Assembly (NCBI GenBank): GCA_013202335.1
Contig: JABMQR010000369.1
Coordinates: 1 to 14,321 of the forward strand
DNA: 14,321 bases
Source: Bacteroidota bacterium
GTDB lineage: Bacteria; Spirochaetota; Spirochaetia; JABMQR01
Reading direction: 5' to 3'
Of the stretch, positions 1-14,192 are shown piece after piece. The position numbers were made by a program, and so were the translations under genes. How positions within the stretch are numbered: position 1 is the first letter of the stretch; every line of letters begins with the position of its first letter. The notes under the pieces are model-generated. The model ran no database searches. It was not told where the DNA came from and was given only the letters and a program-made list of their open reading frames with translations.

Positions 1-125
1 TAGCACAGATTTTTGGTTTGTCAACTTTATTTCTTTACTTTGTTTCATTACTTTATATCCTTGACTTTTCACTCTATTCAACTTACTATTTTTACCATGA
101 CCACGCCCCGCAGCAATCTGGGAAA
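1..125. repeat. Terminal direct repeat, left copy (identical to 14197-14321)
   Basis: The first 125 bases, from TAGCACAGATTTTTGG to AATCTGGGAAA, match the last 125 bases of the window without a difference. The repeat holds the promoter and first 29 bases of the ROK regulator gene plus the -35 box of the opposing iolI-like gene. It has no inverted ends and no transposase nearby, so it looks like an overlap of one continuous sequence and not a mobile-element repeat. The simplest reading is that the molecule or repeat unit closes at 14,196 bp. Confidence 0.97.
61..89 (+). promoter_or_regulatory. Sigma-70-type promoter of the ROK regulator gene
   Basis: A -35 box TTGACT (61-66) and a -10 box TACTAT (84-89) are separated by exactly 17 bases. 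Transcription would start around 96-97, which is the A of the regulator's ATG, so the mRNA would be leaderless or nearly so. The A/T-rich stretch upstream (25-60) contains repeated CTTTA/TTACTTT words that could be a regulator site, but no clear palindrome is visible. A second complete copy of this promoter lies at 14257-14285 in the right terminal repeat. Confidence 0.7.
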
Positions 126-1326
126 AAAACCCAAAAACATCCGCTCGCAAAACAGGAAGCTTATCCTCGAATTGTATCGGGAAAAAGACCTCCTTTCGGT
201 CTCCTCCATTGCCCATACCATAAACTTAAGCCGTACAACAGTGATGAAGATTAATGAGAGCCTCCTCGAGGACGGGATAATCATTGAGGCCGGCAAAGGG
301 GACTCGACCGATGAAGGCGGAAAAAAACCCGCAGTCTACCGGTTCAACACCCAAAATAAATTGATACTCACCTTCTATATTGAATATGATCAGGTACACT
401 TCCGACTCTCTGACCTTAGCTATAACAGCCTGATTGAAGATTCTCTCCCCATGCCGCGTAATGAGAAATTTCCGGAAATTGCACGCAAGATGAAAACCCT
501 TATGGAGACAAACAGCTCCGCTATACCGGACGGCACTGCTGTCCTGGCCTGTATGGTTGCCGTTCACGGTAATGTTGATTCCAATACAGGAGTCTGTCTT
601 CACTCAACCCATTTCCCCTCCTGGGGGACCTTTAATAATTTACATGAGCAGGTGGCAACGACTCTGGAACTTGACTGCCCTATTTATATTGACAACTGGA
701 TTCGTTTCAAGGCCTTTGGGGAAAGCAAGCTCGGTCCGGCAAAGAATCATGAATCTGTGGTGCTTATTGATGCCGGATGGCTCGGTGTTGCCTCAGGAAT
801 CCTGCTGGGAGGAAAAATATTTCCGGGAAATCATTTTCTCTCAGGTGAGATTGGGCATATCTGTCTGAATCCCCTTGATACAGAACCCTGTGCCTGCGGG
901 AGTCATGGCTGTTTTGAACAGCAGATCTCCTGTGAACGGCTTATTGACCGGGCAGAGAACCAGGTAGGGCAGCATGCTTCCTCACTTCTGGGCAACCTGG
1001 ATCATCCGATAGACCTTGCTGCTATTTTTGCTGCTGCTGACCGGGAAGATGTGTTTGCACGGTTACTTCTCGATGACATTATCCAGTGGTTTTCTCTCGC
1101 AATATCAAATATTATTATGTTTTTTGATCCCGAGATTATTCTTATCGAAGGTGATTTTTCTACCGGCTGCCGCTACCTGGAGTCAGAAATCAACATTCAC
1201 GTCAAGAGACTCTCATTACCCAGGCTCTCTCAAAAAACCACTCTCCTGTTTAACGAAGAAAAATCGGCTAACACCCTCAAAGGCGCTGCGGTTCTGGCTG
1301 TTGATTCCTTCTACCACGTCCTTTAG
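97..1326 (+). CDS. ROK-family transcriptional regulator
   Basis: Protein of 409 residues with the layout of ROK repressors such as XylR and NagC. An N-terminal winged helix-turn-helix (about residues 14-65, with the helix pair around SVSSIAHTINLSRTTVMKI) precedes a sugar-kinase-like domain. In that domain a conserved DN lies at about 199-200, EIGH at 251-254, and the zinc-binding signature CACGSHGCFE at 265-274. It probably senses a sugar or inositol-derived ligand and controls this cluster. I chose ATG 97 because it begins just before the conserved N-terminal helix. A TTG at 13 in the same frame would read through the promoter and has no ribosome site. ATG 97 also lacks a Shine-Dalgarno sequence, and the promoter predicts a leaderless transcript. 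Its stop codon overlaps that of the convergent lacI-type gene. It is divergent from the iolI-like gene if the window is closed. The ligand is unknown. Confidence 0.9.
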   Translation: MTTPRSNLGKKPKNIRSQNRKLILELYREKDLLSVSSIAHTINLSRTTVMKINESLLEDGIIIEAGKGDSTDEGGKKPAVYRFNTQNKLILTFYIEYDQVHFRLSDLSYNSLIEDSLPMPRNEKFPEIARKMKTLMETNSSAIPDGTAVLACMVAVHGNVDSNTGVCLHSTHFPSWGTFNNLHEQVATTLELDCPIYIDNWIRFKAFGESKLGPAKNHESVVLIDAGWLGVASGILLGGKIFPGNHFLSGEIGHICLNPLDTEPCACGSHGCFEQQISCERLIDRAENQVGQHASSLLGNLDHPIDLAAIFAAADREDVFARLLLDDIIQWFSLAISNIIMFFDPEIILIEGDFSTGCRYLESEINIHVKRLSLPRLSQKTTLLFNEEKSANTLKGAAVLAVDSFYHVL

Positions 1327-2375
1327 TCTTCCCGGTGTTCTGGTGTTGTGTAGAATTCCAGATTTTCCCGTATGATAAATTCCGGGAATACCCGCTGCCG
1401 GACCAGATCCGGATCTTTCCCGGTAAGAGAATCAAACAAAAGATGCACGGCCTGAAACCCCTGTCGGAATGGGTTCTGATGAACAAGCATATCAACTGTT
1501 CCACGCTCCAGGAACGGCCATAACCGACGGTAAATATCAGTTGAGATAAATGTCACTTTATCCTGAATACCCATTTCCTCCAATTTCTGACCACAGAAAT
1601 GCCCGCCATAAGTAACCAAATACAAACCTTTTAAATCCGGGTATCGATTCCAGGCAGTCTCAACAGCAGCTGCAAGACGTTTCGGATCTTCATGGGTTTC
1701 AATAACTTCTCCAACGGTAAGATGAGGCCAGGATCGTTTAATTTCATTCAGAAAACCTTCTGCTTTATAACGGTGATCCATTACCTCATTACTACCAGAT
1801 AACACACAAACAGTACCGGGAGTATGAATAAAACGCCCCATATATGCTCCTGCAACAGCCCCGGTCTTCCGGGGCGGGACCGCTACCGTTGCCGTACGTT
1901 TACTGTCCGGAGCATCTGTTGCCATGGTCACTACCGGAATACCGGCAGAAACAACTTTATTAATCATAGGGTTAAGCCGTGTCATGTGTCCCGCACAGAC
2001 AGCTATTCCGCTATACCCCTCCTCAAGATATTGCTTTAACAAGAGATTTTCTTCTTTATACCCCAAGGTTTTTGTTTTGGTAATCTTTAGAGATACATTT
2101 AGATCTGACAGCTCTTCTGCCGCCTGAAGTAAACCCTGCTCCACAACATGGTAAAACTCATCCCCTTTATCCGGAATAACGGCAACCAGCCTGTAGCTCT
2201 TGCGGGAAAGAGATTGGGCAAAACGATTTATCCTAAAGCCCTGCTCTTCACACAATCCAAGAATTTTCTCACGTGTCACGGAATTAATTCCCGGCCTGTT
2301 ATGAATTGCCCGATCAACGCTTCCAATAGAAAATCCGCTGATTCTGGCAATATCTTTAACTGTCACTTTTTTCAA
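1323..2375 (-). CDS. LacI-family transcriptional regulator
   Basis: Protein of 350 residues. Residues 1-60 are a typical LacI helix-turn-helix and hinge segment (MKKVTVKDIARISGFSIGSV, then DRAIHNRPGIN and TREKIL). The rest resembles a periplasmic-binding-protein-type sugar-sensing domain. The 'SVDRA' version of the recognition helix replaces the common 'TVSRA'. The start is TTG at 2375, fixed by the conserved MKKVTVKDIA register and by an AAAGGA ribosome site about 7 bases upstream. An ATG at 2379 is in another frame and cannot be used. The gene is divergent from the URO-D-like gene across 160 bases that contain a palindrome with the central CG typical of LacI-family operators. It is therefore likely to control that gene, and possibly the inositol operons. 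The stop codon overlaps the ROK gene's stop (TAA against TAG sharing bases), leaving no room for a terminator. Confidence 0.92.
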   Translation of the reverse strand: MKKVTVKDIARISGFSIGSVDRAIHNRPGINSVTREKILGLCEEQGFRINRFAQSLSRKSYRLVAVIPDKGDEFYHVVEQGLLQAAEELSDLNVSLKITKTKTLGYKEENLLLKQYLEEGYSGIAVCAGHMTRLNPMINKVVSAGIPVVTMATDAPDSKRTATVAVPPRKTGAVAGAYMGRFIHTPGTVCVLSGSNEVMDHRYKAEGFLNEIKRSWPHLTVGEVIETHEDPKRLAAAVETAWNRYPDLKGLYLVTYGGHFCGQKLEEMGIQDKVTFISTDIYRRLWPFLERGTVDMLVHQNPFRQGFQAVHLLFDSLTGKDPDLVRQRVFPEFIIRENLEFYTTPEHRED

Positions 2376-2535: not shown

Positions 2536-3822
2536 ATGTACCGACACCTAAATGTCCGCGTTGATTACACAGACTGCAACTATACAAATCTCACCATAGA
2601 AAAAGAGGACAGAAACTGCTTAAAGAAGCTCTCTGCCCAGGTTCGGGAAATTGCTGAGCGTCCTGAAAATGCAGAGAAAAAACGGCTCTGGACTCTTCAC
2701 AATAAACTCAAAGGGGAACGCCCAATGATTTTGTGTGATCCGGAGAACGGATGGCATGAAATTGTACCTGAAGCTTCCCTCACCTGTAAGAATGACATAG
2801 CACGCCACTGGGAACTGACTTTGAGAAAACAGTTGTTCTGGGGAAACCGCATGAAAGATGATTATGTTTTTGAGCCGATTTTTGATCTTCCCCATGTGTA
2901 TACGGAAAAACCCTGGAGAATTCGTGATAAAGAGGAGAAAAGCCATGGTTTCCAAACCCAGCTGGATGGAGGAGCATACCACATTGACAACATCATGGAG
3001 TCGTATGATGAAGTGAAAGACATTCTTTCACCGAAAATTACCGTTGATTACACAACAACTGACAAGCTGTTGGATATTGCCAATGAGATTATGGGCGACA
3101 ACCTGACCATTCAAAACCGGACAGTCTGGTTTTGGTCTTTCGGAATGACTGATGAATTTGCACAACTCAGAGGAATGGATTCAATGCTGTTCGATTTTTT
3201 TGATAATCCGGATGGAATACATGCATTAATGAGACGGCTTCAACAGGGTACGATCGAACGCCTTGATTTTCTGGAAAAAAACAATCTGTTATCCCCGAAT
3301 AATAACTATACGTTTGTCGGCTCCGGCGGTGTAGGATATTCAGATGAACTCCCCTCCACAGAACCCGCAGCACTTTCAACTTTATGGGGTCTGGCAGAGA
3401 GCCAGATTACTGTTGGAGTTTCCCCGGATATGTTTGCTGAATTTATTTTTCCCTACCAAAAAGAGATAATGGAAAAATTCGGGCTTACCTGCTACGGCTG
3501 CTGTGAAGGAATGGATTCCCGTTTTGAGACAATAAAAGCAGTCAGGAATCTAAGAAGGATATCCGTTTCTCCCTGGGCAAATCATGAGAAAATGAGCGAT
3601 CTGTTGAAAAAAGATTATATATACTCCTTAAAACCTTCCCCTACTCCTTTATCCTTATCGGAAATAGATAGTAAATCTGCTCGTGATGAACTGATAAACA
3701 ACCTGAAACTTACCCATGATAAGAATAATTTGGAAATAATTATGAAAGATAACCATACATTAGGAAATAATCCGGAAAATGTAATTCAATGGGTTGAGAT
3801 GGCACGGAATCTGATATCTTAG
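2536..3822 (+). CDS. Uroporphyrinogen decarboxylase (URO-D)-fold family protein, function unknown
   Basis: Protein of 428 residues resembling URO-D-like proteins often found near sugar-catabolism genes, not true heme-pathway HemE. The conserved stretch CYGCCEGMDSRF (319-330), followed by RRISVSPWANHEKM, places a cysteine-rich site where zinc-dependent methyltransferases of this superfamily (MtaA/CmuA type) carry metal ligands. True URO-D active-site motifs are not evident. A ribosome site AAAGGAGA lies 5 bases before ATG 2536. The first 20 or so residues look like a non-conserved extension. It is transcribed alone from an operator-controlled promoter and ends at a bidirectional terminator. 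No corrinoid protein lies nearby, so a methyl-transfer role, for example on O-methylated inositols such as pinitol, is only a speculation. The family assignment is fairly safe; the reaction is not known. Confidence 0.8.
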   Translation: MYRHLNVRVDYTDCNYTNLTIEKEDRNCLKKLSAQVREIAERPENAEKKRLWTLHNKLKGERPMILCDPENGWHEIVPEASLTCKNDIARHWELTLRKQLFWGNRMKDDYVFEPIFDLPHVYTEKPWRIRDKEEKSHGFQTQLDGGAYHIDNIMESYDEVKDILSPKITVDYTTTDKLLDIANEIMGDNLTIQNRTVWFWSFGMTDEFAQLRGMDSMLFDFFDNPDGIHALMRRLQQGTIERLDFLEKNNLLSPNNNYTFVGSGGVGYSDELPSTEPAALSTLWGLAESQITVGVSPDMFAEFIFPYQKEIMEKFGLTCYGCCEGMDSRFETIKAVRNLRRISVSPWANHEKMSDLLKKDYIYSLKPSPTPLSLSEIDSKSARDELINNLKLTHDKNNLEIIMKDNHTLGNNPENVIQWVEMARNLIS

Positions 3823-3887: not shown

Positions 3888-3933
3888 ATGCTCTATTCAC
3901 AATTTTCCTATACCTGCACGCAGAAAAACGTTT

Positions 3934-4833
3934 CTACAGCCCGGTTTGTTCCCGTATATAATCTCTGGCCATTTTTGCATAGGTAAGCGGGTGTGCTTTT
4001 GCAGGATCCTGTTCAGCCTCAACAACCATCCAGCCTTCATAGTTATTCTCTTCAAGCACAGAAAAGATTGTTGGAAAATCCAGGATCCCGTCACCGGGAA
4101 CTGTAAACACGCCGGATCCTACAGCGTTCATAAAGCTCATATCATTATCACGGCAGCGCTCTCTCTCCCCGGCCCGTACATCTTTCAGGTGAACATGCTT
4201 TGTTCGGCCTACATACTTTTTCAAGGCTGCAACCGGATCCTCAAAAGAGAAGAAGAAATGACCTGAATCATAATTCAGCGCTACATACTCAGGTTTTGTC
4301 TCATGCAAAAGTCTGTCTGTCTCTTTCATAGTCTGGACACCCGTACCCATGTGGTGATGGTAGCAAAACTGAATACCAAACTCTTCAAGGGAAATCTTTC
4401 CCAATTCATTCAATCCACGAGTTAACTTTTTCCATTCATCTTCTGTATATTGGGCCTTTTTGCCCCACACGGAAGCGGTAATATCGCCCTGGGGGGAATG
4501 ACCCTGCTCTCCCCCACCCACAACGACGGCACCCATAGCATTGAGGAAAGTACAGTGCTCTATAAAAGCTGCCTTGTTTTCCTCAAAGGATTTGGTTGTA
4601 AGATAAGGACTGAACCAGGCATTGCAGACCTGCAGACCCCGCAGCTCCAGAGCAGCTTTCAATTCAGTTGGATCTTTAGGAAACTTATTTCCCACTTCAC
4701 AGCCGGTAAATCCTGCCAGTGCCATTTCACTGACACATTGTTCGAAGGGAATATCGCCACCCAGTTCGGGAATATCATCGTTAGTCCATGTAAGAGGCGC
4801 TATGCCCAGCTTTACCTTCGTTGAATCAAACAT
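3934..4833 (-). CDS. iolE: Inosose dehydratase IolE
   Basis: Protein of 299 residues, normal for IolE (myo-inosose-2 dehydratase), which removes water from 2-keto-myo-inositol to give trihydroxycyclohexane-1,2-dione. The match to the Bacillus enzyme runs end to end: GIAPLTWTNDD (10-20), GCEVG (44-48), YHHHMGTG (158-165), YDSGH (188-192), HVHLKDVR (213-220), FTVPGDG (243-249) and VEAEQDP (271-277). These include the metal-binding Glu, Asp and His positions of this TIM-barrel family. ATG 4833 lies 8 bases after AAGGAG. ATG 4839 would be only 2 bases away, and a longer reading from 4872 starts inside iolD. The iolD stop is 13 bases upstream, with this gene's ribosome site directly beside it, suggesting coupled translation. 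It is the last gene of the six-gene minus-strand operon. Confidence 0.96.
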   Translation of the reverse strand: MFDSTKVKLGIAPLTWTNDDIPELGGDIPFEQCVSEMALAGFTGCEVGNKFPKDPTELKAALELRGLQVCNAWFSPYLTTKSFEENKAAFIEHCTFLNAMGAVVVGGGEQGHSPQGDITASVWGKKAQYTEDEWKKLTRGLNELGKISLEEFGIQFCYHHHMGTGVQTMKETDRLLHETKPEYVALNYDSGHFFFSFEDPVAALKKYVGRTKHVHLKDVRAGERERCRDNDMSFMNAVGSGVFTVPGDGILDFPTIFSVLEENNYEGWMVVEAEQDPAKAHPLTYAKMARDYIREQTGL

Positions 4834-4846
4834 CTTCATCTCTCCT

Positions 4847-6715
4847 TTAGAATTGTTTTGCCTCAGCAGCATTCTTTTTCATCTCTTTCCAAACTTCTAC
4901 AACTTCCGGTTTTTCAGAAACTTCCGGTGTACCCACCCGCCACCATGTACTATAGGAATCAGTCATGGATTTTCTTTCAGTCTTACAATCGATTAGTGTG
5001 GATACGGGACTATTCAAGACCCCTTCAACAGCGGTAGTAAAATCCTCACTGTTTTCTACACGCCAGGATTGAAAGCCTAATGCTTTAGCTGACATTGCAT
5101 AATCAACGGGGATGTAATCTCCATCCAGCTGACCGCTCTTTTCGTTCCTAAACCTGAATTCACAGCCGAAATGGGGAATTCCCTGAGAAGCCTGTAAGTT
5201 ATCAATACAATGAAATCCATTATTATCAATCAGGATTATATTTATTTTCAACCCTTCCTGTATACTGCTGAACATTTCCGAATTCAGCATCAAATAGCTG
5301 CCGTCTCCCACCAGACAAAACACCTCCCTTTCAGGTTCGGCAATTTTAACTCCCAAAGCACCTGCTATTTCATAACCCATGCATGAAAAACCATATTCCA
5401 GATGATAGGTATCTCTTGTCCTGGTTCTCCAAAGCCTCTCCATATCAGAGGGCAGTGATCCTGAGGCAGAGACCATAATTGCATTATCGGGTATAAGCTT
5501 CTCATTCAGCAATCCCATAACCTTTGTCTGGGTAAATCCATCGACCTTGTCATCGGTACTGTAGAGCCGATCGTTCTCTTTTTTCCACTCGGCAAATATT
5601 TCCTGAGGCAGGTTCTCCCAATCGGTGAAATATGCAGCTTCAGTCAACCGGCTTCCCATAGCCTGAAGCCCCTCTCTGGCATCACAAAGGAATGGTGATG
5701 CATTCATTTTATATGCATCAAAATTATTCACATTCAGGCTGATTATTTTTACATCAGGATTATGATAGTTCCACTTTGATCCTGTTACAAAATCGTTCAA
5801 TCTTGTACCGACAGCTATAATAACGTCGGCTTCATGAGCTATTGTATTTGCAGCCAGGGTTCCGCACACACCGGTTCCTCCCATATTCATGGGGTGATCC
5901 CAGAGAATCGTTCCTTTACCCGCCTGTGTCTCTCCAAAAGGAATGCCGAATTTCTCTGCAAAGAGGGCCAGTTCATCCCCGGCCTCAGAATACCGCACAC
6001 CACCTCCGCAGATAATCATGGGTTTTTTACTTTTCATAACAATATCAGCAGCCTGATCTGCATCACTGACAGCCATTGGCCTTCGGGAAATACGGTGCAC
6101 CTTTTTCTCAAAAAAGCTTAGTGGATAATCATAAGCTTCCCCCTGAACATCCTGCGGCATTGCCAGGCAAACTGCACCAGCTTCAGCCGGGTCTGTCAGA
6201 ACCCTCATAGCATTGATACAGGCCAGCATAAGCTGGTCCGGGCGATTAACCCGGTCAAAAAACCGGCATACCGGCTTAAAAGCATCATTGGCTGAGACTG
6301 TATAATCAGATGAGTTCTCTACCTGCTGCAGCACAGGGTCAGGTTGACGGCAGGCAAAATTATCACCCGGCAGGAATAATACAGGAATCCTGTTTACTGT
6401 AGCTGTTCCTGCAGCGGTTACCATGTTCAGGGCCCCCGGACCGATAGAACTTGTTACTGCCATTATGCGTCTTCTGTTTGATTGCTTGGCAAATGCTATT
6501 GCAGCGTGACCCATTCCCTGTTCAGAATGACCCTGATAGAATTTCAGTGAATGATTCGGTTCCTGTAGAGCTTCCCCAATACCGGCCACACAACCATGAC
6601 CAAAAATCCCAAATACGCCTTCAATAAACTTATTCTCTACTCCATCCATTTCAACGTATTGATTATCAAGGAATTTCACTAAAGCCTGTGCGGTGGTTAA
6701 TTTTATCGTTTTCAT
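4847..6715 (-). CDS. iolD: 3D-(3,5/4)-trihydroxycyclohexane-1,2-dione hydrolase IolD
   Basis: Thiamine-diphosphate enzyme of 622 residues that opens the ring of the IolE product to give 5-deoxy-D-glucuronate. It follows IolD closely: KTIKLTTAQALVKFL at the start, IFGHGCVAGIG (37-47), the Glu-containing QGHSEQGMGHA (61-71, likely cofactor-activating E65), RQPDPVLQQ (123-131), YHLEYGFSCMGYE (437-449), and the thiamine-diphosphate motif beginning GDGS (470-473) and closing at NNG (498-500). The C-terminal MTDSY-TWWRVG segment is also typical. ATG 6715 is preceded by AAGGAGAAGGA. An upstream in-frame ATG at 6739 abuts the thiolase stop and lacks a comparable site. It lies 24 bases after the thiolase gene and directly before iolE. 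All family landmarks are present, so the enzyme should be active. Confidence 0.97.
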   Translation of the reverse strand: MKTIKLTTAQALVKFLDNQYVEMDGVENKFIEGVFGIFGHGCVAGIGEALQEPNHSLKFYQGHSEQGMGHAAIAFAKQSNRRRIMAVTSSIGPGALNMVTAAGTATVNRIPVLFLPGDNFACRQPDPVLQQVENSSDYTVSANDAFKPVCRFFDRVNRPDQLMLACINAMRVLTDPAEAGAVCLAMPQDVQGEAYDYPLSFFEKKVHRISRRPMAVSDADQAADIVMKSKKPMIICGGGVRYSEAGDELALFAEKFGIPFGETQAGKGTILWDHPMNMGGTGVCGTLAANTIAHEADVIIAVGTRLNDFVTGSKWNYHNPDVKIISLNVNNFDAYKMNASPFLCDAREGLQAMGSRLTEAAYFTDWENLPQEIFAEWKKENDRLYSTDDKVDGFTQTKVMGLLNEKLIPDNAIMVSASGSLPSDMERLWRTRTRDTYHLEYGFSCMGYEIAGALGVKIAEPEREVFCLVGDGSYLMLNSEMFSSIQEGLKINIILIDNNGFHCIDNLQASQGIPHFGCEFRFRNEKSGQLDGDYIPVDYAMSAKALGFQSWRVENSEDFTTAVEGVLNSPVSTLIDCKTERKSMTDSYSTWWRVGTPEVSEKPEVVEVWKEMKKNAAEAKQF

Positions 6716-6739
6716 ATTTCCTTCTCCTTCTTGCTTCAT

Positions 6740-7921
6740 TTATAGTCTTTCAATAATTACGGTCTCGCCCTGCCCTCCGCCAATACAGAGAGAAGCCAGA
6801 CCTTTTTTTGCCCTATTCTGCTTGAGGATATTCAGGAGAGTAATTAATATACGTGCTCCTGAAGCACCTATGGGATGCCCAAGAGCAATAGCCCCTCCGT
6901 GAATATTTACTTTTTCCCTATCAACATTGAGATCCCGAAGCACAGCCAGTGATTGGGCGGCAAAAGCCTCATTTAACTCGACAAAGTCCATATCAGAGAG
7001 CGACATACCTGCAAGCCTAAGAGCTTTCTGCACTGATGGTACTGGGCCAAGCCCCATAAAGGCCGGATCCACCCCGCCTGAACCGTAAGAAACAATCTCA
7101 GCTTCAGGTGTCAGTCCATATTTCTTAACTGCCTCTTCCCCGGCAATAAGAAGCATGGCTGCCCCGTCATTAATACCGGATGAATTACCTGCAGTAACTG
7201 TACCCTCTTTTTTGAAAGCCGGCCGCAGCTTTGAAAGTGTCTCAATGGAAGTTCCCGGCCGTAAGTATTCATCTGAATCAAAAACAATGGGCTTCCCCTT
7301 ACGCTGGGGAATTTTAACAGGTACAATCTCATCAACAAAAAAGCCCTCTTGCTGTGCTGTAAATGCTTTTTTCTGACTTTCAGCAGCAAAAAAATCCTGC
7401 TCTTCTCTGGTAATAGTGTATTTTTCAGCAATATTCTCAGCAGTTATTCCCATATGATAATCATTGAACGCGTCCCATAATCCATCCTGGATCATGGAAT
7501 CTACTGCCTGTACAGACCCCATTGCATTTCCAGTTCTCATTTTGTGCAGCAGATAGGGAGCCTGACTCATATTTTCAGTTCCCCCGGCAAGCAAAAGAGA
7601 TCCATCGCCGGCCTTGATTATCTGGGCAGCCAGGGACACTGACCTAAGCCCGGAACCGCAAACCTTATTAAGCGTCATAGCCCCGCTTGTTTCCGCCATA
7701 CCTGCATGTATGGCTATCTGACGTGCTACGTTCTGGCCCAGCCCTGAAGCAAGCACACAACCGATTATGGCTTCATCCACAGATGCGGGATCAATTCCCG
7801 CCCGTTTAAAAACTGCTTTTGAGCATATTCTCCCCAGCTCAACAGCTGAGACAGAGCTTAAGCCGCCCAAAAATTTACCAATAGGGGTTCTGGCTGCTGA
7901 TACAATATAAACTCGTTCCAT
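6740..7921 (-). CDS. Thiolase (acetyl-CoA C-acyltransferase family)
   Basis: Protein of 393 residues, standard for tetrameric cytosolic thiolases that join two acetyl-CoA or cleave a beta-ketoacyl-CoA. All catalytic elements are visible: the acyl-accepting C88 in NKVCGSG, NEAF (317-320), H349 in [11 protein letters not shown], and C379 in CIGGGQG near the end. It starts 2 bases after the CoA-transferase B stop, with AGGGG as ribosome site inside that gene, and lies 24 bases before iolD. This tight packing ties it to inositol-ring breakdown. Family knowledge would allow acetoacetyl-CoA synthesis (butyrate route) or degradative cleavage. The adjacent CoA-transferase and IolD make cleavage of a hydroxylated beta-keto acid derived from the opened ring an attractive but unproven role. 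Confidence 0.95.
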
Positions 7922-7923
7922 AC

Positions 7924-8700
7924 TTAACCCCTGCCTATAACATACCGATAGGGATCAACCTCTTTCCGAAGGGTTCGTAATTCTTCTTCAGTTGGAGGAG
8001 CTGTATCTTTCAAATTATCGCACCAGAGCAGCTCAAATCCGCAGTTATCCTGCACATCCTTCCGGGTATACCCTGGATTCAGGGATAACACCTGCATACG
8101 TTTTGATTCCTGCTCAAACCCCATTACTGCCATATTCGTTATAATCTTATACGGTCCTGTTCCCAATGGGAGCCCGCTTTTTTCCCTGCTGTCTCCGCCT
8201 GTGAGAAAACCGGGTGATGTAAGAAAATCCAGCTTCTCGACAAATCTCCGGGAATCCTGCGGGGTTATAACCATTGTCCGCCAGCATAAAGAGGCAAAAT
8301 CATTGGCTCCTCCGCTACCGGGAAATCGTACTTTTGGTTTTGCATGATCATCCCCAATCATTGTTGAGTTGATATTGCCATACATATCTATCTGGGCACC
8401 ACCCAGAAAGGTGTAATCCACCATACCCCTGCAGCATGCATCCATAATATCGTTCATGCTGCCGGCCTTGACTGCTTTGTGTGTTGTACGGCTGTCTCCT
8501 ACAGAGATAGGCATTTCCGAAAGCAGCGGGCTGATTCCCCCTGCCTCGAATAGAATTACTAAATGAGGTGCATACAATTTTTGTGCAAGCATAGCTGCTG
8601 CACAAGGCGCCCCGGTACCTACTCCGCAGCTGGATCCGTCAACCAGTTCACGGGCGGCAACACAGATCATCAGTTCCATGGTATTGTATTCAGTACTCAT
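7924..8700 (-). CDS. CoA-transferase subunit B (glutaconate CoA-transferase B-like)
   Basis: Protein of 258 residues matching family I CoA-transferase beta subunits of the glutaconate (GctB)/IpdB branch. It has [16 protein letters not shown] (25-40), then [10 protein letters not shown] (51-60), where E52 falls at the place of the catalytic glutamate of GctB (E54 in Acidaminococcus). It also has [12 protein letters not shown] and [12 protein letters not shown]. Retention of this glutamate favours a transferase over the related hydrolase IpdAB, reported to lack it. Its ATG overlaps the subunit A stop in an ATGA junction, so the two subunits are translationally coupled for stoichiometric assembly. 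The ribosome site GGGAGA lies within subunit A. The CoA acceptor is unknown. The position before thiolase and iolD suggests a beta-keto acid from inositol breakdown. Confidence 0.9.
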
Positions 8701-9686
8701 GTATCTTCTCCCACCATTAATTCCTGCTGCCGAAGCTGTCTCATTTTTTCAGCCCCGCCATTCACATTTATATAATCCTGGTGACAGGTGCAGTCATAAA
8801 TATTTTTTTTGAGAAATGCGCTAAACTTTTCAGGGTCTTTTTCCGCCTGCAGCCACTCCCTCAAGTGCTCCTCATCAGAAAAGTATTCTCCCGGCATGTT
8901 TCCGGGATAAGCTCCTCCGGGAACTTCACAAACAGCATCAACAAGGTAATAGGGTATCTGGACAACATCCGGGTTGTTCCGTATTTCATCATTTGTTATT
9001 AGCCGTTCTGCAGTAATAACCAGTTTCTTTGCTGCATTAGCTGTATCAATATCGGCTGCAGATATACCCTTAAACCGGCAATTTCCGTAAACATCTGCTT
9101 CATGTACATGCAGAAATGCAATATCAGGATAAATTGCTGGTTTGAGAACCAACGGAATTCCGGTGAATGGGCATTTGGTAATAATACCGCAGCCATACTT
9201 AAATGTATCTGTTCCCATCACATTTCGGGCCGGCATGTAGGAGAGTCCCATTGCGGCAGCTTTAAGTCTCAAAGCCAGTCCATAATTGGTATCTTCACAA
9301 ATTTGGACTTTACCGCTTTGCATATACTTCCTGCTGCAGGAAGAGAGACCCCGTGCTTCCAGCCCAACAATATAGGCAACATCAACCCGGTCAAAAACCT
9401 CTCCCGAAGAGAGTACCTGCATATCATGGGTAGACGTATGCCCGGCAAATCCTAAGTTTTTCTTTCCCTGCCTCACTATTTCATGACAAGCTGCCAATGG
9501 GGTTCTGTTAGCACCAAATCCACCGATAACAAGGTAATCGCCATCCTGGACAAACTGGCTAACAGCTGCTTTTAACGACATAAGCTTGCGGACCATCTTT
9601 CTATTTTTATTTCTGAAAAATGCTCTTGCATTGTCTGGATTGGGATCAGTAAAAACAGGCCCTTTCCCTTTTGCTGCTATATCCAT
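8697..9686 (-). CDS. CoA-transferase subunit A (glutaconate CoA-transferase A-like)
   Basis: Protein of 329 residues, close to GctA length (about 320). After an N-terminal segment ending near KLMSLKAAV it shows the CoA-transferase hallmark VIGGFGANRTPLA (53-65), then the family pattern with GLEARGLSSCSR, an AAAMGLSYMP segment, ARNVMGTDTFKYG, and ADVYGNCRFKG. It forms the alpha partner of the next gene, with which it overlaps by 4 bases. ATG 9686 follows GAGG with an A-rich spacer. The roughly 36 residues before the core (FTDPNPDNARAFF) are a recognised extension in related subunit A proteins, so this start is favoured over M31. It sits 51 bases after the Gfo/Idh/MocA gene. The substrate is not readable from sequence. 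Confidence 0.9.
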   Translation of the reverse strand: MDIAAKGKGPVFTDPNPDNARAFFRNKNRKMVRKLMSLKAAVSQFVQDGDYLVIGGFGANRTPLAACHEIVRQGKKNLGFAGHTSTHDMQVLSSGEVFDRVDVAYIVGLEARGLSSCSRKYMQSGKVQICEDTNYGLALRLKAAAMGLSYMPARNVMGTDTFKYGCGIITKCPFTGIPLVLKPAIYPDIAFLHVHEADVYGNCRFKGISAADIDTANAAKKLVITAERLITNDEIRNNPDVVQIPYYLVDAVCEVPGGAYPGNMPGEYFSDEEHLREWLQAEKDPEKFSAFLKKNIYDCTCHQDYINVNGGAEKMRQLRQQELMVGEDT

Positions 9687-9737
9687 TTTTTTCCTCTTGA
9701 TACTTATGATCTACATAAAATTGCACATTGTCTCTGT

Positions 9738-10913
9738 CTAGAAATCTACCCAGACAGACCCCAGGTCCGCAGACTCCACACAGCGCTCAATCAGGCGGAC
9801 ACCTTCAATCCCGGCATTAATATCCGGATACCAATAGTCGTTTTTATATTCATCGCTTCCCCGCTCTGCACTATCCATAACCAACGCAAAGCGGTGATAT
9901 ATATTTGCCCAGGATTCAAACAAACCAACGGCATGGCCTGCTCCAATTCGATTAATACCTACCGCAGGATCATCGTTATAGTTATAGCCATGACCCCGAT
10001 CAAGTATACGTTTCGGCTCTCCCTGTATCTGGTAAAGCAGCTGATTCGGATGCTCATCACACCACTCAATACTTGCTTTTGATCCTACTACACGAATTTT
10101 TTCATCATGCGTTGATCCGGCATTCACACAACTAGCCCAAAGATTGCCGACTGCTCCGTTTTCAAAGTTCATAAGGACAAATGCATTGTCTTCCAGCGGA
10201 GCGCGGGATGGAACAAAACTTTGCCTCATACACATAAGATTCTTTATTTTCAATCCGGGAACCATCACCTCGGCAAGATAATATGCATGCGTCCCTACAT
10301 CTCCCAGTACATAGGAAGGTCCTGCCATCTCAGGGGTAACCCGCCACTTTGTACCCATATCATTCAACTCGACTGCTTCAGAATGCCATCCATGCGCAAA
10401 CTGCATATTAATGATTCGGATCTCCCCAAGCTCACCATTTTTAATCATATTTCGTGCCTGGTGAATCATCTGGTGACCGGAATATCCATAGGTTACACCG
10501 ACTACACGATTGTTTTTTTCTGCAATTGACTTCAACTCTTCTGCTTCTTCTGCCGTAAACGTCAAGGGCTTTTCACACACAACATGCAGTCCTGATTCCA
10601 GAGCGGCTTTTGTCATTTCATAATGAAACTTATTGGGAGTTGCAATTGATACTACCTGAATGCCATCCGGACGTTCCGACTCTTTTTGAAACATCACCCG
10701 ATAATCAGGATAGCAACGACTCTCATCAACTCCTATATTCTTTCCAAACTCAATACATCGTTCATAATTTATATCAAAAGCACCTGCTTTAAGTGTGAAT
10801 AACCTATCTCTTGCAGCAGCTGACCGATGTATATATCCAATCTGGCTTCCCCGTCCGCCCCCAACCATACCCCATTTCAAGGGTTGGTTAAGTCTGAATT
10901 CTTCATTAAACAT
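9738..10913 (-). CDS. Gfo/Idh/MocA-family NAD(P)-dependent oxidoreductase
   Basis: Protein of 391 residues with an N-terminal Rossmann fold (GMVGGGRGSQIGYIHR, 15-30), the conserved catalytic lysine in CEKPLT (113-118), and D205 and H209 in GDVGTHAYYL. This Asp-x3-His pair is used by inositol and sugar dehydrogenases of the family. It differs clearly from the IolG at 12174-13190, having the longer GGG-GS-IG-HR nucleotide loop. It probably oxidises a different polyol, inosose or ring-opened intermediate. AGGAGGAG lies 3 bases before the ATG. It is the first gene of the operon that continues with CoA-transferase A and B, thiolase, iolD and iolE. A strong promoter and a CAAACGTTTG operator stand before it. 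Possible roles are scyllo- or chiro-inositol dehydrogenase, or the dehydrogenase making the substrate for CoA activation. Confidence 0.88.
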   Translation of the reverse strand: MFNEEFRLNQPLKWGMVGGGRGSQIGYIHRSAAARDRLFTLKAGAFDINYERCIEFGKNIGVDESRCYPDYRVMFQKESERPDGIQVVSIATPNKFHYEMTKAALESGLHVVCEKPLTFTAEEAEELKSIAEKNNRVVGVTYGYSGHQMIHQARNMIKNGELGEIRIINMQFAHGWHSEAVELNDMGTKWRVTPEMAGPSYVLGDVGTHAYYLAEVMVPGLKIKNLMCMRQSFVPSRAPLEDNAFVLMNFENGAVGNLWASCVNAGSTHDEKIRVVGSKASIEWCDEHPNQLLYQIQGEPKRILDRGHGYNYNDDPAVGINRIGAGHAVGLFESWANIYHRFALVMDSAERGSDEYKNDYWYPDINAGIEGVRLIERCVESADLGSVWVDF

Positions 10914-10994: not shown

Positions 10995-11022
10995 AAAAAA
11001 GACCAAACGTTTGCTCTTTTTT
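10995..11022. promoter_or_regulatory. Operator palindrome upstream of the operon promoter
   Basis: A perfect 10-bp core CAAACGTTTG (11004-11013) has its symmetry extended outward by AAAAAAGA/TCTTTTTT with only one mismatched pair, giving a 28-bp inverted repeat. The central CG is LacI-family style. It begins 1 base upstream of the -35 box, centred near -48. There it could either hold an activator or hinder polymerase. The long A and T arms could also act as a weak terminator for the gene at 11059-11967. The same core recurs at 11987-11996. Confidence 0.7.
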
Positions 11023-11058: not shown

Positions 11059-11967
11059 CTATTTCTCAAATCCCTTGCGTATAAGAAAATCCAGACTTTC
11101 CGTAATATCCTGAAAAACACCAGCTGAATCCAGCGGATCACGTTCCTGTTCGATTGTTATCCAGCCCTGATACCCAAGTTGATTCAGAGATTCCTTAATT
11201 GTCCGATAATCCACGCATCCTCTTCCTATTGAGCACATTACACCATCCAGGCAGGCATCAAAAAAACCCTGGTTCTTATAAATGGCCTTATGATACCTAT
11301 CCTTGTTAATATCCTTGAAGTGAAGATAATCAAGCCTTTGGAAATACTTACGTATGCTTTGTGCAGGATCATCCCCGGCATAATACAAATGCCCGGTATC
11401 TAGACACAAACCTGCTTTTTCATCCGGAATATCCTGCAGATAGTGCTCAATTTCATCATCAAACTCAATAAACCCACCCGCATGAGGGTGTACAACCGGT
11501 CTTATACCATATTCCCCATCCGCAATCTGAGCTATGATTTGTATATGATTCATCATAACAGCCCAATCCTCCGGGCCAAGCCGCAGGGCTTTTTCCGATT
11601 GTCCAGCCGTATGGTTTCTCTCATTTTTCACCTTATCAATTATAACAAGACAGGCTTTCTGTCCCACTTCAATTATCGATGACAGAAGCCTGCAGGTGGT
11701 ATGTGTTTTTTCCAGAAGATCGCTTACATTACTGCTGCTCAGCAGGTCATCATACAGTGTGCCGGCAACAAGGGTCAGGCCTCTGGAGTCTAATTCATCC
11801 TTTAGCATAACAGGATCCTGAGGTAAGTATCCATATGGGCCGAGTTCTATCCCCCTGAACCCTCCTTTAGAAGCCTCATCCAATACTGTCATCCAGGAAG
11901 GATTGTTTTTGTTCGATGCATCCTCAACACCCCACGAACAGGGGGCGATTGCCAGGTTTGTTTTCAT
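11059..11967 (-). CDS. IolE/MocC-like TIM-barrel sugar isomerase/dehydratase
   Basis: Protein of 302 residues of the xylose-isomerase-like TIM-barrel superfamily, closest in pattern to inosose dehydratase IolE. It has LAIAPCSWGVEDA (5-17), GIELGPYGYLP (39-49), VVHPHAGGFIE (158-168), CLDTGHLYYAGD (188-199), LHFKD (215-219) and ITIEQERDP (270-278). These supply the Glu, His, Asp and His metal ligands. Compared with the real iolE product it lacks YHHHMGTG (here HPHAGG) and FTVPGDG (here MCSIGRG), so its substrate probably differs. ATG 11967 is preceded by GGAGAG 4 bases away. An ATG at 11979 would start at that site and is less likely. It is transcribed from its own operator-bearing promoter just upstream of the main operon, whose promoter lies 66 bases past its stop. 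Confidence 0.87.
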   Translation of the reverse strand: MKTNLAIAPCSWGVEDASNKNNPSWMTVLDEASKGGFRGIELGPYGYLPQDPVMLKDELDSRGLTLVAGTLYDDLLSSSNVSDLLEKTHTTCRLLSSIIEVGQKACLVIIDKVKNERNHTAGQSEKALRLGPEDWAVMMNHIQIIAQIADGEYGIRPVVHPHAGGFIEFDDEIEHYLQDIPDEKAGLCLDTGHLYYAGDDPAQSIRKYFQRLDYLHFKDINKDRYHKAIYKNQGFFDACLDGVMCSIGRGCVDYRTIKESLNQLGYQGWITIEQERDPLDSAGVFQDITESLDFLIRKGFEK

Positions 11968-11983
11968 AAATCTCTCCATTTAA

Positions 11984-12000
11984 GGACAAACGTTTGCTCT
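11984..12000. promoter_or_regulatory. Second CAAACGTTTG operator, over a transcription start
   Basis: The 10-bp palindrome CAAACGTTTG (11987-11996) is followed by CTCT exactly as in the copy at 11004-11013, so the two sites share a 14-base asymmetric word as well as the palindrome. Here it lies directly after the -10 box and covers the predicted start near 11994, a classic repressor position. The outer symmetry is weaker than at the other site. Confidence 0.7.
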
Positions 12001-12073: not shown

Positions 12074-12110
12074 AAAAAAGTTAACCCCAAGCTGACAGCC
12101 GGGGGTTAAC
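12074..12110 (-). terminator. Rho-independent terminator of iolG
   Basis: GTTAACCCC (12080-12088) and GGGGTTAAC (12102-12110) form a perfect 9-bp stem around a 13-base loop. On the minus strand the hairpin is followed directly by TTTTTT (complement of 12079-12074). It lies 64 bases past the iolG stop and isolates iolG from the next promoter at 12030. The plus-strand side lacks a T-tract. Confidence 0.93.
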
Positions 12111-13312: not shown

Positions 13313-14134
13313 TCAGCTGAAAAGAAAGTTGTTACTCGCTGCAAGGTTTTTCTTAAGTTCGGAAACAGATTGTTTTTGGACCACCGGTGAAAAAGGTTCA
13401 TAGGAAATTGGTTCAGTATAGCCGCTATCTAAAAGTTGCCTGATCTGTGCCTTGTTGTTCATAATATCTTCTCTATCAACCAGCACCCTGTCATCATCCG
13501 AGATATCTTCCATACTTTTTCCTGCATACACACCGGATATATGAACCAATCCGGTCCATTCTCCAAACACCTGAGTTTCACCGCTCAAATAATGATGAAA
13601 GGTATCATGAACCAGTCTGTATAATTGAGTATACCCACTCTCCTTAATAGCATTAACAGCCTGCTCTTTATACCGCACACTGCAGATTGAAAATCCGAGA
13701 GGTTCAATAAGGCCTATTATTCCTTCTTCCGCCAGCAGCGGCGCGTAGTTCTTCAAGGCTTCAACCAGGTCACTTTTCTGCCTGGCCGCAGATCGCCTAT
13801 CCTTCAGATCGTTAACCGGACAAAGAACAATCTGTGAGCACCCTACACTTTTTGCTTCCCTGATCAAGGAGAAAAGTTCTTCTTTTTTACTACTAAAAAG
13901 AAGAGGATCGTTAAACCTTTGAAGTGCATTTATAGTAAGAATTTTTACCCCTTCACGTTTACAGGATGCTAGTATGTCATCAGCCTTCTCATCCCCCAGT
14001 ACCCGCGGATCTTCCAGGTCGTTCCTCAATTCTACTTTGGAAAAACCGGATTCAGCGGCAAAGTGAATAAATTCTGTTACGGAAAGATCTGGTTTAATAA
14101 TTCTATTGATTGAGAGTTTGTTGGAATAATTCAT
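13313..14134 (-). CDS. iolI: IolI-like inosose isomerase (TIM barrel)
   Basis: Protein of 273 residues resembling IolI, which interconverts 2-keto-myo-inositol and 1-keto-D-chiro-inositol. Shared landmarks with the Bacillus enzyme are KVELRNDL (33-40), LTINALQRFN (66-75), IEPLGFSICSV (143-153), VHDTFHHY (175-182), LVHISGV (196-202), DDDRVLVDRED (213-223) and SYEPFSP (244-250). Together they provide E144, D177, H198 and E246 as likely metal ligands. AAGGAGGGG stands 6 bases before ATG 14134. A longer in-frame reading from 14176 adds 14 unconserved residues and ignores this site. It is likely cotranscribed with iolG and would let D-chiro-inositol or its ketone enter the pathway. An uncharacterised relative of IolI remains possible, so the symbol is less certain than for iolG, iolD and iolE. 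Confidence 0.78.
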   Translation of the reverse strand: MNYSNKLSINRIIKPDLSVTEFIHFAAESGFSKVELRNDLEDPRVLGDEKADDILASCKREGVKILTINALQRFNDPLLFSSKKEELFSLIREAKSVGCSQIVLCPVNDLKDRRSAARQKSDLVEALKNYAPLLAEEGIIGLIEPLGFSICSVRYKEQAVNAIKESGYTQLYRLVHDTFHHYLSGETQVFGEWTGLVHISGVYAGKSMEDISDDDRVLVDREDIMNNKAQIRQLLDSGYTEPISYEPFSPVVQKQSVSELKKNLAASNNFLFS

Positions 14135-14192
14135 ACGTATCCCCTCCTTCACCTTTACAGTAAAACAAGTCATCAAGGCCTTTACTTATTCT

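What the first reader, a model, noticed from the sequence alone, without database searches (positions are those of the whole stretch)
3934..10913. Possible CoA-dependent lower branch of inositol degradation replacing IolB/IolC/IolJ/IolA
Seen: one tightly packed operon encodes a Gfo/Idh/MocA dehydrogenase, CoA-transferase A and B, thiolase, IolD and IolE. Gaps are 2 to 51 bases, with one ATGA overlap. Known: IolD yields 5-deoxyglucuronate, normally processed by isomerase IolB, kinase IolC, aldolase IolJ and dehydrogenase IolA; none is present here. Inference: 5-deoxyglucuronate has a CH2 next to its carboxylate and a hydroxyl on the beta carbon. Oxidising that hydroxyl gives a beta-keto acid, which a CoA-transferase could activate and a thiolase cleave to acetyl-CoA plus a four-carbon acyl-CoA. 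The route would need no kinase and would keep the thioester energy.
Basis: inference. Interest (0 to 1): 0.78.

Follow-up and report, generated by a model that had tools for sequence, protein, structure and literature searches.

The report
Inositol operon carrying CoA-transferase and thiolase
A bacterial gene cluster for breaking down inositol also carries two enzymes that attach coenzyme A to acids and split the products; they probably handle a later product of inositol breakdown, but the proposed replacement of all the usual lower steps is not shown, and one gene it relied on probably belongs to the ordinary upper steps.

Summary
Window 3934-10913 is a tight six-gene minus-strand operon: Gfo/Idh/MocA dehydrogenase, GctA, GctB, thiolase, IolD, IolE. 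No IolB, IolC, IolJ or IolA relative was found in the 14.3 kb, but the source genome is not held, so absence from the genome is untested.

The proposed route is only partly supported. The dehydrogenase is a misplaced pillar: its closest plasmid relative (67%) sits inside iolE-iolD-Gfo-iolC-iolB-like-aldolase in Photobacterium, and six of eight relatives read sit beside a TIM-barrel gene like the one upstream here. It probably belongs to cyclitol oxidation, not to a bypass of IolB/C/J.

The CoA module is real. GctAB belongs to a family that in some genomes stands near beta-keto-acid enzymes. Its clade seems to occur with IolD on two more metagenome contigs, inferred from matching contig lengths. 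The thiolase keeps a short-chain acetoacetyl-type active site.

I therefore favour action on a small beta-keto acid made further downstream, most likely 3-oxopropionate: activation by GctAB, then splitting to acetyl-CoA and formyl-CoA. That would replace IolA only. A six-carbon thiolytic route is not excluded. My searches listed no paper on this gene set. New variant of a known kind.

The parts
9738..10913 (-). Gfo/Idh/MocA dehydrogenase, 391 aa; related to dehydrogenases found in iol operons that keep iolC, probably a cyclitol dehydrogenase
   Evidence: PF01408/PF02894; 579 bits to PDB 7d5m/7d5n; 63-67% to the plasmid relatives read; inside iolE-iolD-Gfo-iolC-iolB-like-aldolase in L103; EKP at 114 and DVGTH at 205
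8697..9686 (-). GctA-like CoA-transferase subunit A, 329 aa; Asp at residue 132 where 113 of the 120 best hits (window included) have Trp
   Evidence: PF01144; 127 bits to 1poi_A; clade support 99/89
7924..8700 (-). GctB-like CoA-transferase subunit B, 258 aa; catalytic-type Glu52 kept
   Evidence: 156 bits to 1poi_B; Glu in 58 of 58 aligned rows (window plus the 57 cluster members of 245-275 aa); ATGA overlap with GctA
6740..7921 (-). thiolase, 393 aa, acetoacetyl-CoA (ThlA) type
   Evidence: PF00108/PF02803; 498 bits to 4dd5_A; VCGSG, HMG, MGLGP, NEAF, GHP, CIGGG motifs; next best of the scored proteins 66%; most deviant of its row set
4847..6715 (-). IolD, 622 aa (ORF could start at 6739)
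   Evidence: TIGR04377 916 bits, cut-off 715; most listed homologs 618-626 aa
3934..4839 (-). IolE (ORF listed from 4872; likely start 4833-4839)
   Evidence: TIGR04379 392 bits, cut-off 290; start region read
11059..11979 (-). IolE2: IolE-like TIM barrel, recurrent partner of the dehydrogenase
   Evidence: 169 bits to TIGR04379, below cut-off 290; 45-48% to the TIM barrel next to Gfo in 6 of 8 plasmid loci
12174..13190 (-). IolG, inositol 2-dehydrogenase
   Evidence: TIGR04380 458 bits, cut-off 355
13313..14176 (-). third TIM-barrel gene (isomerase-like, role open)
   Evidence: PF01261; 136 bits to 2q02, 36 bits to IolI 1i60
11004..11016 (-). operator-like GAGCAAACGTTTG upstream of Gfo, just before a TTGACA-16-TATAAA promoter-like pair
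   Evidence: the promoter pair was read by eye and is not in the list
11987..11999 (-). second exact GAGCAAACGTTTG, just after the promoter-like site 12030-12001 of IolE2
3926..3933 (.). third AAACGTTT core, directly after the IolE stop
   Evidence: 3 found; mean 0.17 in shuffles
12085..12104 (-). terminator-like hairpin between IolG and IolE2
   Evidence: terminator scan as a whole near chance: 15 found, 13.1 expected

Best explanation
This is a cyclitol (inositol) breakdown operon. IolG, the dehydrogenase with IolE2, IolE and IolD form the ordinary upper branch as far as 5-deoxyglucuronate (inferred from family membership). GctA, GctB and the thiolase are an added module that activates a small beta-keto acid made further down and splits it. 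The most likely substrate is 3-oxopropionate from IolB/IolC/IolJ steps encoded elsewhere in the genome: GctAB would move CoA onto it, and the thiolase would split 3-oxopropionyl-CoA into acetyl-CoA and formyl-CoA, which could donate its CoA to the next molecule and leave formate. The module would then stand in for IolA alone, without making NADH or CO2. Shown here: gene order, families, kept catalytic motifs, family context. Inferred: the substrate, the direction and the presence of IolB/C/J in the genome.
For: Relatives of the dehydrogenase occur with iolC and iolB-type genes, so it does not argue for a bypass of IolB/C/J. GctAB relatives (A 60-68%, B 63-78%) lie near a BKACE-type gene in 10 of 75 loci and near an HMG-CoA-lyase-like, a carboxyltransferase and an enoyl-CoA-hydratase gene in 5 of 75, settings whose beta-keto acid is acetoacetate-sized (inference). 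The thiolase keeps the short-chain motifs. Anaerostipes is predicted to put CoA on 3-oxopropionate from inositol with a different CoA-transferase (PMC8355322, opening parts and passages read). Malonate semialdehyde is carried to acetyl-CoA and formate with BKACE, CoA-transferase and thiolase in an engineered cycle (PMC11961710, passages).
Against: No iolB, iolC or iolJ is visible in the window and the genome is not held. A thiolase acting on 3-oxopropionyl-CoA is not known to me; the engineered cycle used BKACE, and no BKACE was found in the window (12 ORFs scanned). The thiolase is the most deviant of 121 aligned rows (20 of 198 conserved columns, median 3), which may mean a different substrate. 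The W-to-D change in GctA may also point to a polar substrate. 60 of the 75 GctA loci have neither kind of beta-keto-acid neighbour.
Confidence: 0.38

Rival explanations
1. One reading: 5-deoxyglucuronate is oxidised at the beta carbon, activated by GctAB and cleaved by the thiolase to acetyl-CoA and a C4 acyl-CoA, replacing IolB/C/J/A.
For: All activities sit in one operon with IolD; no IolB/C/J/A found in the window; the GctA clade seems to recur with IolD; phloroglucinol breakdown is a known parallel: ring hydrolase, hydroxyacid dehydrogenase, beta-keto cleavage, with thiolase and CoA-transferase in the cluster (PMC10470551, passages).
Against: The dehydrogenase's relatives live with iolC and iolB-type genes or with the TIM barrel, with GctAB or thiolase in 0 of the 8 loci read; the thiolase is of short-chain type.
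Confidence: 0.12
2. A C6 beta-keto acid arises without any oxidation of the linear acid: the second IolE-type enzyme (IolE2) removes a further water before or after IolD, or an isomerase shifts the carbonyl, and GctAB with the thiolase then cleaves it to acetyl-CoA and a C4 acyl-CoA.
For: Two IolE-type genes with the same operator-like sequence upstream of their units; Asp at GctA 132 next to invariant Glu131; deviant thiolase.
Against: The IolE2-dehydrogenase pair exists without IolD or GctAB hits nearby in 6 of 8 plasmid loci, so IolE2 has a use of its own; no chemistry tested.
Confidence: 0.14
3. The module is ordinary acetoacetate/acetyl-CoA traffic (2 acetyl-CoA to acetoacetyl-CoA and exchange with acetate or butyrate), co-expressed because inositol fermentation floods the cell with acetyl-CoA.
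For: ThlA-type thiolase; GctAB relatives near BKACE and HMG-CoA-lyase-like genes; the thiolase-gctA-gctB trio near an electron-transfer flavoprotein gene, with no inositol-gene hit in the locus and no IolD over cut-off in that genome (L063).
Against: The module lies between the dehydrogenase and IolD with 51 to -4 b spacing and seems to recur with IolD on other contigs; no hbd-, crt- or bcd-type gene among the 12 ORFs scanned.
Confidence: 0.26

Closest known systems
Canonical myo-inositol (iol) pathway of Bacillus/Klebsiella type
   Same: IolG, IolE, IolD over curated cut-offs; a 67% relative of the Gfo dehydrogenase lies in such an operon
   Different: iolB, iolC, iolJ, iolA not found in the window; gctA-gctB-thiolase stand between the dehydrogenase and iolD
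Anaerostipes inositol-to-propionate pathway (PMC8355322)
   Same: A 3-oxoacid CoA-transferase serves inositol breakdown in an anaerobe
   Different: Anaerostipes keeps IolB/C/J, and its oxcT operon has enoyl-CoA hydratase and acyl-CoA dehydrogenase genes; the word thiolase does not occur in the main text. Its transferase groups with propionate CoA-transferases in the paper's tree
Anaerobic phloroglucinol cluster of Clostridium scatologenes (PMC10470551)
   Same: Ring-opening hydrolase, dehydrogenase, CoA-transferase and thiolase in one cluster
   Different: Hydrolase is not IolD; carbon-carbon cleavage is by a BKACE-family enzyme, not found here
Alternative inositol route of Thermotoga maritima (recalled, no call)
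   Same: Inositol breakdown that departs from the canonical order
   Different: Recalled to branch before IolD and to use other ring-opening and epimerase enzymes; here IolD and IolE are present
Glutaconate CoA-transferase (1poi)
   Same: Both subunits match by sequence; catalytic-type Glu kept
   Different: Substrate unknown here; some close relatives stand near acetoacetate-forming genes

Membership tests
Canonical iol pathway | IolG, IolE and IolD present | tested here: met
   All over NCBIfam cut-offs
Canonical iol pathway | IolB, IolC, IolJ, IolA present in the genome | not testable with these tools
   Not found in the window; whole genome not held
Class I (Gct-type) CoA-transferase | Two PF01144 subunits with the catalytic Glu in the B subunit | tested here: met
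   Glu52 in 58 of 58 rows. That this Glu is the catalytic one in 1poi is recalled
Class I (Gct-type) CoA-transferase | CoA transfer activity and substrate | not testable with these tools
   Needs an assay
Acetoacetyl-CoA thiolase (ThlA) | Catalytic Cys-His-Cys and short-chain pocket motifs | tested here: met
   VCGSG, GHP, CIGGG, HMG, MGLGP, NEAF; roles of the motifs recalled
   Relatives sit with iolC and iolB-type genes or with IolE2-like genes; GctAB or thiolase hits in 0 of 8 loci
   Two further contigs by length coincidence; 0 of 80 genome loci, the best of 413
Anaerostipes propionate pathway | CoA-transferase next to enoyl-CoA hydratase and acyl-CoA dehydrogenase | tested here: not met
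   None among the 12 ORFs scanned; definition from PMC8355322
Phloroglucinol-type pathway | BKACE cleavage enzyme in the cluster | tested here: not met
   No PF05853 among the 12 ORFs scanned

The most novel reading that the evidence does not exclude
A phosphate-free, thiolytic lower branch of inositol breakdown: IolD, alone or with a second IolE-type dehydratase, leads to a C6 beta-keto acid that GctAB charges with CoA and the thiolase splits to acetyl-CoA and a C4 acyl-CoA, so that no isomerase, kinase, aldolase or semialdehyde dehydrogenase is needed.
Probability: 0.24. Interest if true: 0.8.

Novelty: new variant of a known kind. Interest (0 to 1): 0.45.

Why it matters
Inositol released from phytate is food for gut anaerobes, and the one anaerobic route that I read in detail (Anaerostipes, PMC8355322) passes through IolB, IolC and IolJ. 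If a CoA-transferase and thiolase do serve inositol carbon, either the last step gains a formate-releasing, NADH-free form, or the whole lower branch has an unphosphorylated alternative. Both would change product and ATP yields, and both can be tested with a few purified proteins.

Tried and rejected
Rejected: that the dehydrogenase points to oxidation of 5-deoxyglucuronate. Rejected: that the Anaerostipes paper already describes this operon. Rejected: my own note that 1poi_A also has Asp at the GctA 132 position; the alignment pairs it with Tyr (corrected). Led nowhere: scans of IMG/VR with the dehydrogenase, IolD and GctA (no relatives); IolD in 395 genomes of one phylum at E<=1e-150 (none; the tool itself warns that an empty answer without a positive control shows nothing); Asp-type GctA pattern in 155 genomes of one class (only the genome it came from, so that contig may be misbinned); single-sequence fold of the dehydrogenase (pLDDT 33, not used); PDB search with the 2536-3822 protein (none). 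Contig lengths were typed by hand: 118 of 120 for GctA, 120 and 120 for IolD and thiolase; the two left out (1447 and 1408) are in neither other list.

Full report
What is there. The minus strand of 3934-10913 encodes, in order of transcription, a Gfo/Idh/MocA dehydrogenase, GctA, GctB, a thiolase, IolD and IolE. IolD, IolE and the neighbouring IolG pass their curated cut-offs. GctA and GctB match both subunits of glutaconate CoA-transferase 1poi, and the GctB catalytic-type Glu is kept in 58 of 58 aligned rows (the window plus the 57 of 66 cluster members that are 245-275 aa long). Gaps are 51, -4, 2 and 24 bases down to IolD, and IolE starts right after the IolD stop. Upstream lie an IolE-like TIM barrel (IolE2), IolG and a third TIM barrel. 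An exact 13-base sequence, GAGCAAACGTTTG, stands before both IolE2 and the dehydrogenase and nowhere else in the window; 0 of 200 shuffles held it twice, but the pattern was taken from the two copies themselves, and the 10-base core with one mismatch allowed occurs twice or more in 13 of 200 shuffles. Each copy lies beside a promoter-like pair (the one before the dehydrogenase, TTGACA-16-TATAAA, was read by eye; the promoter scan as a whole is near chance, 30 found and 28.3 expected). This looks like co-regulation of two units; a LacI-type gene at 1323-2375 is a candidate regulator, by inference.

What the dehydrogenase is. Plasmid relatives of 63-67% were read in 8 loci. In Photobacterium (L103) it stands inside a run of iolE (424 bits, cut-off 290), iolD (866, 715), Gfo, iolC (375, 300), an iolB-like gene (161, below the cut-off of 205; PF04962 241 bits) and a class II aldolase of the kind that IolJ is (PF01116 266 bits). 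In Vibrio ponticus it shares a 48-kb plasmid with iolB, iolD, iolE, two iolG and a PfkB kinase. In the other 6 of 8 (L098, L099, L100, L104, L105, L106) it directly follows a TIM barrel 45-48% identical to the window's IolE2. GctA, GctB or thiolase hits: 0 of 8, in flanks of about 8-12 kb. The eight are not independent: they include two Priestia megaterium and two Sinorhizobium fredii plasmids. The dehydrogenase thus goes with cyclitol oxidation and IolE2, and is found together with IolC and IolB-type genes. The closest solved structures, 7d5m and 7d5n, are named only Oxidoreductase; I recall, without a call, that they were deposited as inositol dehydrogenase homologs.

What the CoA-transferase is. 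A scan of species genomes kept the best 80 of 413 relatives, with GctA 60-68% identical; GctB was found beside it in 77 of 80, at 63-78%. None of the 80 has an IolE, IolG or dehydrogenase hit within the flanks held; the only IolD hits, in L034 and L036, are 24% identical. Of 75 loci where GctA was called, 10 have a member of one cluster close by whose two scanned members are BKACE, and 5 others an HMG-CoA-lyase-like gene with a carboxyltransferase and an enoyl-CoA hydratase; 60 have neither. That suggests 3-oxo acids, mostly of acetoacetate size, but only for part of the family. Of 7 genomes with such GctA genes searched for IolD, one has a true IolD, in an ordinary iolC-aldolase/iolD/iolE/iolG run with no GctAB or thiolase hit in the 4.8 kb read. 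In the protein search, GctA residue 132, beside invariant Glu131, is Trp in 113 of the 120 best hits, Asp in 6 (the window among them) and Gly in 1; among 76 genome-locus proteins it is Trp in 61, Asp in 1 (L063), and 14 escaped the search pattern but show Trp when read. The Asp and Gly rows form one group (support 99/89; 107 rows, and the column itself was not left out of the tree). Two Asp-type proteins other than the window's have longest contigs of 51370 and 8804 bases, lengths that recur exactly among IolD relatives ranked 9th and 10th. Shifting the lengths gave 0.1 coincidences above 8 kb on average (maximum 1), and 0.56 (maximum 3) over all lengths. I read this as two further contigs with gctA and iolD, but I could not see them. 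The closest IolD relatives of all (79-84%) show no such match. In L063 the trio thiolase-gctA-gctB stands without inositol genes, so the Asp type is not proof of an inositol role.

What the thiolase is. It is closest in the PDB to acetyl-CoA acetyltransferase 4dd5 and keeps all catalytic and short-chain motifs that I looked for. Among the 8000 candidates scored the next best protein is 66% identical, and it is the most deviant of 121 aligned rows, at 20 of 198 conserved columns against a median of 3 and a next highest of 16. None of its 119 best relatives has a longest contig of 51370 or 8804 bases, so the thiolase's link to IolD is seen in the window alone.

How it probably works. The enzymes present carry inositol to 5-deoxyglucuronate. 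GctAB and the thiolase need a beta-keto acid. The established pathway makes one only after IolB, IolC and IolJ: 3-oxopropionate. CoA transfer to it has been predicted in Anaerostipes (PMC8355322; opening parts and passages read). Carriage of malonate semialdehyde to acetyl-CoA and formate with a CoA-transferase and thiolase exists in an engineered cycle, though there through BKACE (PMC11961710, passages). I therefore favour a module that replaces IolA, splitting 3-oxopropionyl-CoA to acetyl-CoA and formyl-CoA, with IolB/C/J elsewhere in the genome. Nothing here shows the substrate.

Novelty. Searches for inositol with thiolase, CoA-transferase, iolD, iolE, 5-deoxyglucuronate, glutaconate CoA-transferase or Spirochaetes listed no paper that by title or abstract start describes this gene set; beyond the five papers opened, only listings were seen. 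A 2025 review of gut inositol metabolism speaks of CoA transferases only for Anaerostipes and has no thiolase (PMC12482443, passages), and a 2026 pig-gut study has none of the six terms (PMC12838507). The library lacks most subscription journals.

Noticed in passing
window 11004-11016, 11987-11999, 3926-3933: Palindromic AAACGTTT cores, two within exact GAGCAAACGTTTG, flanking the operon; LacI-type operator-like.
   Followed up: partly
window 2536-3822 (+): 428-aa protein, convergent with the operon, with no Pfam, NCBIfam or PDB match at the thresholds used.
   Followed up: partly
window 13-1326 (+) and 1323-2375 (-): A ROK-family regulator-like gene and a LacI-type gene with a sugar-binding domain, overlapping by 4 bases at their stops.
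   Followed up: no
L098, L099, L100, L104, L105, L106: A two-gene unit, IolE-like TIM barrel plus Gfo dehydrogenase, on Priestia, Agrobacterium and Sinorhizobium plasmids; of the four annotated loci, four have a LacI-type regulator and three a sugar porter nearby; substrate unknown.
   Followed up: partly
L063:5670-8670: Thiolase-gctA-gctB trio with an Asp-type GctA near an electron-transfer flavoprotein gene in a Syntrophaceae MAG; the only match to the Asp-type pattern in 155 genomes of the class, so perhaps misbinned.
   Followed up: partly
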